Shown here: one piece after another, positions 49,945 to 63,479 of the stretch | Position numbering within the stretch: position 1 is the first letter of the stretch | How the letters are laid out: each line of letters starts with the position of its first letter | Assembly: GCA_903851365.1 (NCBI GenBank) | Contig: CAINOB010000125.1 | Location: forward strand, 1-64,000 | From: an uncultured Bacteroidota bacterium | GTDB lineage: Bacteria; Bacteroidota; Bacteroidia; Bacteroidales; UBA12481 | Direction of reading: 5' to 3' | Length of the DNA: 64,000 nt | Position numbers and translations under genes: made by a program | The notes under the pieces: generated by a model | What the model saw: the letters and a program-made list of their open reading frames with translations, nothing else | The model's database searches: none | What the model was told of the DNA's origin: nothing

Positions 49945-52167
49945 ATGGGGAAAAGAACAAACTATGATCCATATGATCATTTCATTATCAGGGCACCACT
50001 TTTCCCGATAGAATTGTTATATGCCGTACCGAATTTACCTGAAGAGTTATTTCACTGGTTGAAATTATTTTGGCAGGATCCCCTGGTTCGTGAATGCATT
50101 TTGCTTGGTAGCTTTGATTTCAGTCAACTAGTTGATAGAGAGTTCGATTCTAGTCGCTCATCCATTCCTGAAACGGGGCTTTTATTGTCATTATTACGTT
50201 ATTTATGCAGATTTTCTTCCCGATGTACCCCTTTTGGAACATTTGCTGGTTTTGCCACCGGAACTTTAGGGGAAGCGACTTCCATAAGATTGAATTCCCG
50301 CAAAGACCATGAACTCCATGCACGACCAGATATGGAGTATTTGATGATGATTGCCCGTTTCCTGCAAACTGATAAAAAAATCAGTGAAAAGCTTCTTTAC
50401 AAAGGAAATACTTCACTCTATCGGGTCGGGGCAAGATGGCATTATGTTGAAGTCAGAATACTGGAAGGTAAACACAAAAAATCCTATGACATTATTACAA
50501 TAAATGATAATGGCGTTATCGGGAAGTTGCTGGAATTCTGTGTTCAGGGAAAGCTACTCGGGGAGATAACTGATTATCTTCAGTCAGGTGGCTGGGAAGA
50601 AAAGGAAGTTATTGATTTTGTTGGTCAGCTTGTTGAGTCGCAGGTCCTTGTTTCATCTTTGGAACCTGTTATTTGTGGCCCGGAGTACCTCCAGTGTTTA
50701 ACTGCTTTGCTTGGCCCCGAAATTGAAAATAATGATACGGTAAAGGCTCTGGTCAAACTCCAGGATATTTTTGACAGCATAAATAAACCTGGGACTGTTT
50801 TGATCAATCTTCCCAAGCTGGATTCCCTGGTTAACCAGATCCCGGTGAAACTAAATCGAAATCACCTGATTCAGGTTGATATGAGATTGGTTAGCAGTTC
50901 CTTATCTATTGATTCTAAAATCACCGGTGAAGTGTTATTGGGACTGAGAATAATGAAAGCGCTATCTGCCGGACGCAAGACCGATGTTTTAAAGGGATTC
51001 AGAGATGCTTTCATTAAACGTTATGGAGACCGCAAGATTTTGCTTGTTAAAGCCTTAGATCCGGAGACTGGAATTGGTCTTGATGGTAAGGCTGAAGGTT
51101 ACTGGACTGATCCGGTTCCTTGGATAGATGATCTGGCCTGGGGACCCTCGATTTCAGTAATTACAGTTGGAAGTGATCCTGGCAAAAGTTGGCTTTCAGG
51201 TAAATTATATCAGGTAATCCGTGATAATGAGCTTTATTTTAATCTTGATGCATCGGACCTTAAGTCTATCGATATACATGCCGGAGTTTGGCCAAGTCAA
51301 CTAACTGCTATGGTAGAACTATTCGAAACCGGAATTTCTGGAGAGTTGAATATTCACCTGTTATCAGCATATTCAGGCAACCCGGCGTTTCTTTTGGGCA
51401 GGTTTGGCTTTGCAGATCCAAATTCCCCCCGGGATTGGATCACAACATTGATTGAAGACGAAGCATCGAGCGATCCAGATACAATATTTGCAGAGGTGGT
51501 TCACCTTCCTGAGGATAGAACTGGCAATGTGCTGCAACGACCCGCTTTTCATGATTATGAAATTCCATATTTGGCGAATTCTTATAAACAACTTGATTAT
51601 CAAATACCTGTAACTGATTTGCTTATATCGGTGGAGAACGACAAAATGGTGCTAAGCTCGGCAACCTCGGGGAAAAGGATTCATCCAAAAATGACAAATG
51701 CTTATAATCATCAATTAGGACATCTTTCGATGTATAAATTTCTACATCGGATTAGTTATCAGGACTTTGATGGTGAATTTAGTCCGGATTGGGGTGATGT
51801 GGCCTATCATGCTTCATTTATCCCGGGAATCAGGTTCAAGAACCTCATCTTATCTGCACCCGTCTGGTTGGTAAAGTGCGAAGAGATTTCAAAATGGTTT
51901 CATACCAGCAGTCGGGAGATCGATTTACCAGAACTGCTCATCTGGAAAAATAATAGACTAATGCCAGACGAAATGCTTTGGATGGCTTCAGATCAGGAAC
52001 TTTACTTTAACTGGACTAATAAGAACCTGATTATGGCACTTTGGGAAAGCATTCACGGTCTCAAAACAGTAAAAATGCGGCCCTTTTATTTTCCGAAAGG
52101 TTCTCCGGTAAAAAGCGCTGAAGGATCTTATGCAAATCAAATCGTTTTTTGCTACAAGAAATCATGA
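49945..52167 (+). CDS. Lantibiotic dehydratase (LanB N-terminal, tRNA-Glu-dependent glutamylation-type domain)
   Basis: LSLLRYLCRFSSRCTPFGTFAGFATG; RPDMEYLMMIARFLQ; HPKMTNAYNHQLGHLSMYKFLHRISYQD; stop overlaps the next ATG (ATGA). Confidence 0.85.
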   Translation: MGKRTNYDPYDHFIIRAPLFPIELLYAVPNLPEELFHWLKLFWQDPLVRECILLGSFDFSQLVDREFDSSRSSIPETGLLLSLLRYLCRFSSRCTPFGTFAGFATGTLGEATSIRLNSRKDHELHARPDMEYLMMIARFLQTDKKISEKLLYKGNTSLYRVGARWHYVEVRILEGKHKKSYDIITINDNGVIGKLLEFCVQGKLLGEITDYLQSGGWEEKEVIDFVGQLVESQVLVSSLEPVICGPEYLQCLTALLGPEIENNDTVKALVKLQDIFDSINKPGTVLINLPKLDSLVNQIPVKLNRNHLIQVDMRLVSSSLSIDSKITGEVLLGLRIMKALSAGRKTDVLKGFRDAFIKRYGDRKILLVKALDPETGIGLDGKAEGYWTDPVPWIDDLAWGPSISVITVGSDPGKSWLSGKLYQVIRDNELYFNLDASDLKSIDIHAGVWPSQLTAMVELFETGISGELNIHLLSAYSGNPAFLLGRFGFADPNSPRDWITTLIEDEASSDPDTIFAEVVHLPEDRTGNVLQRPAFHDYEIPYLANSYKQLDYQIPVTDLLISVENDKMVLSSATSGKRIHPKMTNAYNHQLGHLSMYKFLHRISYQDFDGEFSPDWGDVAYHASFIPGIRFKNLILSAPVWLVKCEEISKWFHTSSREIDLPELLIWKNNRLMPDEMLWMASDQELYFNWTNKNLIMALWESIHGLKTVKMRPFYFPKGSPVKSAEGSYANQIVFCYKKS

Positions 52168-52217
52168 AGGTACCAATCAGAAAATTTCCACCAGGGAGCA
52201 AATGGCTATATATCAAG
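52164..52217 (+). pseudogene. 5' fragment of SpaB_C/thiopeptide-type biosynthesis gene, interrupted by element
   Basis: MKVPIRKFPPGSKWLYIK(IYV*) matches the N-terminus of thiopeptide-type bacteriocin biosynthesis proteins; hits a stop at 52227-52229 inside element sequence. Confidence 0.85.
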
Positions 52218-52223
52218 ATATAC
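52209..52223 (+). repeat. Left attachment site (attL) core region
   Basis: TATATCAAGATATAC; shares AAGAT core with right site. Confidence 0.75.
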
Positions 52224-52291
52224 GTATAAATTCCCCCTCTTCTAAAATTCAACTATTTTTAAGTCTGTAAATAGCTAAAATTTAAGCTATT

Positions 52292-62630: not shown

Positions 62631-62654
62631 TATATATAAGAGCGAATTTAGACG

Positions 62655-62669
62655 TATATAAAGATTTAT
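62655..62669 (+). repeat. Right attachment site (attR) core region
   Basis: TATATAAAGATTTAT; imperfect direct repeat of the left site. Confidence 0.75.
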
Positions 62670-63479
62670 GGTGGCGCTCAGGCACTTGAAGATTGGAGTC
62701 TTGGTCCGTTTAGAGAATTATTGACACTGTGGCAAAATGGGGGACTGGTTACATCATTTCATTTTTTACATTATCTGGATCCCGACTACCATTTGCGTTT
62801 ACGATTCTATTTATCGGATTCCACTGATGCAGGAAAAATTTTGAATCAAATCCACATTTCCTGTGATGAGCTTTTAGTTGAAGATTTAATATGGAAGGTT
62901 GAGGTTGGAACCTACGAGCCGGAGTATGAGCGGTATGGTGAGGAAAGAATGTCAATGGTTGAGAGCTGGTTCGAGATTGATTCACTGTTTTGGCTTGAAG
63001 AGGTCTATCGCCAATCAAAAAATGATACTTCTGATATCTGGAGGTGTGCGGCAAGATCCATTGATGTTTTCCTTGAAGATTTCGGGCTAAATATTGACGG
63101 AAAAATCAAAGTGGTCAGCTTTTTAAGGAAGTCATCAATTGCCCTATTTGGGTTAAACACAACGATGAAAGGCCAGCTGGATAATAAGTATCGAAAACTC
63201 TCGGAAAATTTATCTGACTTCATTGAAAACGGTATTGAGGAATCTGATGAATACCTCATCAGACGGTCAATTGATATCAAAGGATTTGTTTCTAATATAC
63301 TGTCCACCTTTGAAACCCTGGAATTGCTGGTTGAATCGCAAATGCTTCCGGATTTGATTCATATGAGCTTAAATCGTGCCTTTCGCACCAGGCATCGTAT
63401 GCAGGAGTTGGTGGTGTATGATTTTCTGGGTCGATATTATGAATCGAAAAAAGCGAAGGAGAAGAAAGTCACCAATTAG
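62664..63479 (+). pseudogene. 3' portion of SpaB_C/thiopeptide-type biosynthesis gene, separated from its start
   Basis: IYGGAQALEDWSLGPFRELLTLWQNGGLVTSFHFLHYLDPDYHLRLRFYL... to RTRHRMQELVVYDFLGRYYESKK; typical SpaB_C C-terminus. Confidence 0.87.

What the first reader, a model, noticed from the sequence alone, without database searches (positions are those of the whole stretch)
52164..63479. A 10.4 kb serine-recombinase element splits a lantibiotic/thiopeptide-type elimination-domain gene and can be removed in silico to restore it exactly
Seen: the LanB-like gene (49945..52167) ends in ATGA overlapping a second ORF, MKVPIRKFPPGSKWLYIK, that dies after 21 codons. About 10.4 kb later the same frame resumes as IYGGAQALEDWSLGPFRELLTLWQNGG...YLDPDYHLRLRF. 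Joining 52164..52217 to 62664..63479 gives a continuous 289-aa protein with a normal SpaB_C pattern (WLYxKIY..., DPxxHLRLRF) and no missing residues. Known: LanB systems need the glutamylation and elimination domains together, so the integrated state should block dehydration. Inference: excision may act as a genetic switch for a peptide-modification pathway, comparable in logic to skin or comK-type interruptions.
Basis: partly seen in the sequence, partly recalled or inferred. Interest (0 to 1): 0.92.

Follow-up and report, generated by a model that had tools for sequence, protein, structure and literature searches.

The report
Mobile element splitting a lanthipeptide gene
A 10.4-kb mobile element that carries its own serine integrase has inserted cleanly near the start of a freshwater-type Bacteroidetes bacterium's only gene for the second half of a peptide-modifying (lanthipeptide) enzyme; this almost certainly switches that pathway off while the element is in place, but nothing here shows that the element leaves on cue.

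Summary
A 10,446-bp element (52217..62662) separates codons 1-18 of a Lant_dehydr_C/TIGR03891 gene from the rest. Joining the flanks gives a 289-aa protein, ungapped across the junction against intact relatives. Five same-genus genomes carry the gene uninterrupted in the same neighbourhood (mqnB-mqnD-lanB_N-lanB_C-sod). Boundaries are independently supported: both ends share the core AAGAT, and the reconstructed attP is a strong inverted repeat centred on it (15/18 pairs; best of 2000 shuffles 14). The element encodes an apparently intact large serine integrase 30 bp from its right end, a small resolvase, a RecA-family AAA ATPase and an HTH regulator, but no recognised capsid, terminase, relaxase or secretion genes. 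The host genome has one LanB_N, one LanB_C, one LanC and one recognised class I precursor, so the insertion probably disables its only detected lanthipeptide pathway. The switch idea is unsupported: the insertion is unique among about 70 LanB_C-bearing genomes examined, no directionality factor was identified, and no empty (attB) or circular (attP) form was found. LanB_C shows no decay, which fits either a recent insertion or occasional excision. Verdict: a new member of a known kind, moderate interest.

The parts
48386..49108 (+). PNP_UDP_1-family gene, probable MqnB (futalosine menaquinone pathway); conserved upstream neighbour
   Evidence: Pfam PF01048; synteny in relatives
49105..49935 (+). 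mqnD-like menaquinone biosynthesis gene
   Evidence: Pfam PF02621, E 3.6e-68
49945..52167 (+). lanB_N: glutamylation-domain half of a split class I lanthipeptide dehydratase, intact, 740 aa
   Evidence: Pfam PF04738, E 4e-96; PDB matches 9g04 and 5ehk; only copy in the genome
52164..52216 (+). 5' fragment of lanB_C (codons 1-18, up to the crossover); in the integrated state it reads 21 codons to a stop
52209..52224 (+). attL core region TATATCAAGATATACG; shared core AAGAT 52215-52219, inferred crossover AA 52215-52216
52217..62662 (+). integrative element, 10,446 bp
   Evidence: boundaries from the shared core, attP dyad and intact relatives
52292..52322 (+). terminator-like hairpin (12-bp stem plus T run) just inside the left end; may stop host transcription entering the element
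   Evidence: such sites are not above the shuffle expectation for the region, so suggestive only
52398..52598 (+). small ORF, 66 aa, unknown; possible but untested directionality-factor candidate
52626..52988 (+). ORF of 120 aa, unknown
53264..53692 (+). HTH_3-like regulator, 142 aa
   Evidence: Pfam PF01381 E 2.9e-4, below cut-off; phrog_8 transcriptional regulator
53755..54720 (+). ORF of 321 aa from TTG, orphan; only its own copies (289 aa form) found
54866..55252 (+). ORF of 128 aa, unknown
55381..56868 (+). RecA/DnaB-like AAA_25 ATPase, probable replication protein
   Evidence: Pfam PF13481 E 3.8e-20; DnaB-like PHROGs; homologues at 41-54% identity
57160..57861 (+). ORF of 233 aa, unknown
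58084..58410 (+). ORF of 108 aa, unknown
58407..59096 (+). small serine recombinase (resolvase/invertase type), 229 aa
   Evidence: Pfam PF00239 E 1.5e-24; phrog_95 and phrog_125
59377..59913 (+). TPR protein (lipoprotein-like start), probable cargo
59945..60739 (+). DUF4468 protein, probable cargo
   Evidence: Pfam PF14730 E 1.4e-18
60840..62630 (+). large serine integrase, 596 aa, ends 30 bp before the right core
   Evidence: Pfam PF00239+PF07508+PF13408; phrog_95 integrase E 2e-50; conserved recombinase and zinc-ribbon residues
62655..62670 (+). attR core region TATATAAAGATTTATG; shared core AAGAT 62661-62665, inferred crossover AA 62661-62662
62663..63479 (+). 3' part of lanB_C (SpaB_C / Lant_dehydr_C elimination domain), left without its start codon or ribosome-binding site
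   Evidence: PF14028 E 1.5e-44; TIGR03891 on the rejoined protein E 1.3e-44
63609..63998 (+). superoxide-dismutase-like gene (runs on past the listed end), conserved downstream neighbour
   Evidence: synteny in relatives; named by resemblance

Best explanation
This is a small integrative mobile element that entered by conservative site-specific recombination. Its own large serine integrase (60840-62630) joined attP, a palindromic site next to the integrase gene, to an attB lying in the conserved WLY-(I/L)-(K/R)-IYGG coding motif near the start of lanB_C. The gene keeps codons 1-18 on one side and the rest, without a start codon, on the other, so the genome's only detected LanB elimination half, and with it its only detected class I lanthipeptide pathway, should be off while the element is in place. 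Shown: structure, boundaries, intact state in relatives, single copies of LanB_N, LanB_C, LanC and precursor. Inferred: integrase activity, loss of dehydration, and that excision (with a directionality factor) would restore the gene exactly. There is no sign that the interruption is a programmed switch.
For: Rejoined ORF open and colinear. Intact gene in five same-genus genomes, with conserved synteny. Shared 5-bp core, and attP dyad centred on it, above all 2000 shuffles. All att-like sites in the genome are the two junctions. Complete integrase domain set adjacent to the right end. Single LanB_N, LanB_C, LanC and leader-bearing precursor. Integrase not detected in the 60 relatives searched. 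A partly independent metagenome contig, 99.97% identical over 14.5 kb, carries attL. Large serine recombinases are known to disrupt target genes at conserved coding sites (PMC10083194).
Against: No conspecific empty site was found, so the direction of the event is inferred from other species. No close relative of the integrase is known (best 36% identity), so its site preference cannot be checked. The right junction was seen in one assembly only.
Confidence: 0.85

Rival explanations
1. The element is a reversible regulatory switch (skin/comK/SP-beta logic): excision under some condition restores lanB_C and turns on lanthipeptide maturation, and the element may reintegrate.
For: Exact restoration on excision. 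lanB_C shows no decay: it differs at 2 of 91 columns invariant in five relatives, within the range of the others. The integrase looks intact. Serine-recombinase elements do act this way elsewhere (PMC4191935, PMC5025042).
Against: Found in one genome of about 70 with LanB_C; integrase not detected in the rest of the genus; no directionality factor recognised; no attB or attP form found; the one other contig found is occupied at the left end. Lack of decay fits a recent insertion equally well.
Confidence: 0.1
2. Assembly or binning artefact: unrelated sequence joined into lanB_C.
For: The genome is a 130-contig assembly.
Against: Precise site-specific anatomy at both ends with a palindromic attP; a second assembly shows the same left junction.
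Confidence: 0.03
3. The truncated downstream ORF (for example from TTG at 62721, 252 aa) is still expressed and functional, so the insertion has little effect.
For: An open frame with a TTG start exists from 62721.
Against: It lacks N-terminal residues conserved in all aligned relatives (P10, G11, W14, Y16, Y20, G22, E27, W29), and no in-frame ATG or GTG start lies near attR.
Confidence: 0.05

Closest known systems
Integrative elements carrying large serine recombinases (LSRs) that disrupt a target gene (catalogue in PMC10083194)
   Same: LSR next to one end, short core identity, dyad attP, target within a conserved coding sequence, host gene disrupted.
   Different: Target is a split LanB elimination-domain gene; the integrase has at most 36% identity to any protein found; small element with no recognised transfer or virion genes.
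SP-beta prophage in spsM of Bacillus subtilis (PMC4191935)
   Same: Large serine recombinase; att site inside a host coding gene; excision would reconstitute a composite gene.
   Different: Here no SprB-like accessory factor, no developmental programme and no excision are known; the element is 10.4 kb with no recognised virion genes.
skin element in sigK of Clostridioides difficile (PMC5025042)
   Same: Integrase gene lies immediately beside the 3' part of the interrupted host gene; LSR family.
   Different: skin is present in most strains and is excised under a directionality factor made in the mother cell; here the insertion is found in a single genome.
Split class I LanB (pinensin type; PMC7268733)
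   Same: [quoted passage not shown] a precursor with a Gly-Gly leader and a LanC in the genome.
   Different: The lanB pair sits in the menaquinone locus, on a different contig from lanC and the precursor, and lanB_C is interrupted.

Membership tests
LSR-type integrative mobile element | Large serine recombinase with Resolvase, Recombinase and zinc-ribbon domains | tested here: met
   conserved residues
LSR-type integrative mobile element | attL/attR sharing a short core; attP with inverted symmetry adjacent to the integrase gene | tested here: met
   core AAGAT, attP dyad 15/18 versus shuffle maximum 14; integrase ends 30 bp from the core
LSR-type integrative mobile element | Uninterrupted target site in relatives | tested here: met
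   five same-genus genomes
LSR-type integrative mobile element | Integrase activity on these att sites | not testable with these tools
   needs a recombination assay
Programmed intervening element (skin / SP-beta / comK type) | Excision under a host programme or condition | not testable with these tools
   no reads or cultures; no attB/attP form found
Programmed intervening element (skin / SP-beta / comK type) | Recombination directionality factor encoded | tested here: inconclusive
   several small orphan ORFs, none recognised
Programmed intervening element (skin / SP-beta / comK type) | Insertion conserved across strains or species | tested here: not met
   unique among 27 of 395 order-level and 43 of 396 class-level genomes with LanB_C; strain-level distribution unknown
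Split class I lanthipeptide dehydratase | LanB_N and SpaB_C domains on separate adjacent genes | tested here: met
Split class I lanthipeptide dehydratase | LanC and class I precursor in the genome | tested here: met
   LanC C15:45708-46805; precursor with lant_leader_L1a
Tailed prophage | Terminase, portal and capsid genes | tested here: not met
   no such Pfam or PHROGs hits among the element's scanned ORFs
Integrative conjugative or mobilizable element | Relaxase and/or type IV secretion genes | tested here: not met
   no such Pfam hits

The most novel reading that the evidence does not exclude
The element is a reversible genetic switch for lanthipeptide maturation: regulated integrase-driven excision restores the split LanB elimination gene in part of the population or under some condition, which as far as I know would be the first such switch in a RiPP pathway of Bacteroidetes.
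Probability: 0.1. Interest if true: 0.75.

Novelty: new member of a known kind. Interest (0 to 1): 0.38.

Why it matters
It gives a fully delimited, testable att system (integrase, attP, attB) with an integrase far from known ones, targeting a conserved motif of LanB elimination domains. It shows how one mobile-element insertion can silence a whole lanthipeptide pathway whose dehydratase genes are single-copy and unlinked to precursor and cyclase. Genome mining would list a truncated gene here unless the element is recognised.

Tried and rejected
Tailed prophage: no structural or terminase hits. Conjugative element: no relaxase or secretion hits. Defence cargo: no PADLOC hits. Recurrent targeting of lanB_C by related elements: none in the order- or class-level surveys. 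Decay of lanB_C after insertion: its terminal branch is about 1.9 times that of lanB_N on a fixed topology, but one intact relative (G004) shows the same ratio (0.296 against 0.148) and conserved columns are kept, so no decay is claimed. Circular form in IMG/VR: no attP match. Close relatives of three other element proteins in viral contigs by single-protein scans: none. Two homologues (ATPase 44%, integrase 33%) are both reported on 8,744-bp NCBI contigs, perhaps one related element, but the context could not be read.

Full report
OBSERVATION. The coordinates in the finding are right. The lanB_N ORF (49945-52167) ends in ATGA and overlaps a second ORF starting at 52164 that stops after 21 codons. 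The frame resumes at 62664. Joining the flanks gives 870 nt and a 289-aa protein without a stop. The rejoined protein matches TIGR03891 over the whole profile, and its downstream part matches PF14028.

RELATIVES. A search of 60 relatives found the gene in five same-genus genomes at 46-61% identity, as one uninterrupted ORF (the 'TAG' reported in one of them is its natural stop). The alignment runs through the junction without a gap. In G004, G005, G006 and G007 the order mqnB-mqnD-lanB_N-lanB_C-sod is the same as here; in G001 lanB_N-lanB_C-sod is seen at a contig end. The named versions of these records are Bacteroidetes metagenome-assembled genomes, several from lakes by their titles.

BOUNDARIES AND MECHANISM. 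The two junctions share AAGAT (52215-52219, 62661-62665). The reconstructed attP (GAATTTAGACGTATATA-AAGAT-ATACGTATAAATTC) is a strong inverted repeat: 15 of 18 pairs, where 2000 shuffles reach at most 14, and its centre falls on the AA of the core. attB, attL and attR lack it. This is what a serine integrase attP looks like (general knowledge), and it supports the boundaries independently of the gene alignment. With crossover at AA, the element is 52217-62662, 10,446 bp. A pattern fitting all four att forms occurs in the genome only at these two places.

THE ELEMENT. All recognised genes are on the + strand: an HTH regulator, a 495-aa AAA_25 ATPase resembling DnaB/RecA-like replication proteins, a small resolvase, a TPR protein, a DUF4468 protein, and a 596-aa large serine integrase ending 30 bp before the right core. 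The integrase keeps the residues invariant among its relatives. No capsid, terminase, relaxase, secretion or defence gene was recognised. The best integrase homologue is 36% identical; the ATPase has homologues at 41-54%; the 321-aa protein is an orphan. A terminator-like hairpin sits at 52292-52322, about 75 bp inside the left end; such hairpins are no more frequent in the region than in shuffles, so this is only suggestive.

CONSEQUENCE FOR THE HOST. The genome has one LanB_N, one LanB_C, one LanC on another contig and one class I leader-bearing precursor about 4.6 kb from that LanC. The LanC/precursor region is partly conserved in relatives. Split LanB enzymes carry glutamylation and elimination on separate polypeptides, as in pinensin and thiopeptide biosynthesis (PMC7268733), so loss of lanB_C should stop dehydration; this is inference. 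A caution: some stand-alone elimination-domain proteins may have other functions, but here no other LanB elimination domain was found and the two halves are adjacent.

SWITCH OR SIMPLE INSERTION. Known switch elements such as SP-beta in spsM and skin in C. difficile sigK depend on a directionality factor and a host programme (PMC4191935, PMC5025042). Here the integrase was not detected in the other same-genus genomes, and lanB_C is interrupted in this way in no other genome among 27 of 395 at order level and 43 of 396 at class level that have the domain. No attP was found in IMG/VR. The one metagenome contig found with a pattern fitting attL or attB is 99.97% identical over 14.5 kb and carries attL; it may come from the same or a related sample, so its independence is limited. 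lanB_C is not decayed, which does not separate a recent insertion from continued use. LSRs commonly disrupt target genes and can choose conserved coding sites (PMC10083194), so no special function is needed to explain this case.

VERDICT. The anatomy is real and unusually clear; the switch interpretation is possible but unsupported. Interest 0.38; new member of a known kind.

Noticed in passing
48386-52167 and relatives L015-L019: The split lanB pair sits in the futalosine menaquinone locus (mqnB-mqnD) upstream of a superoxide dismutase gene, on a different contig from lanC and the precursor, and this arrangement is conserved in the genus.
   Followed up: partly
L024 (G000:C15:37000-56000), 8691-9968 and 14553-14765: LanC and a class I precursor (lant_leader_L1a, Gly-Gly leader) flank a CHAT/TPR protein and an S41 peptidase; a similar order occurs in G005 (L173).
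   Followed up: partly
window 58407-59096: The element carries a second, small serine recombinase besides the large integrase; an IMG/VR record (L076) carries relatives of both (41% and 29% identity).
   Followed up: no
L066 and L071 (G178:C62:37149-38013): A lanB_C homologue in another genome of the order has five in-frame stops and looks like a pseudogene.
   Followed up: no
window 51427 and about 54124: The near-identical metagenome contig L040 differs from the window by one substitution (in lanB_N) and one 3-nt indel (in an element ORF).
   Followed up: no
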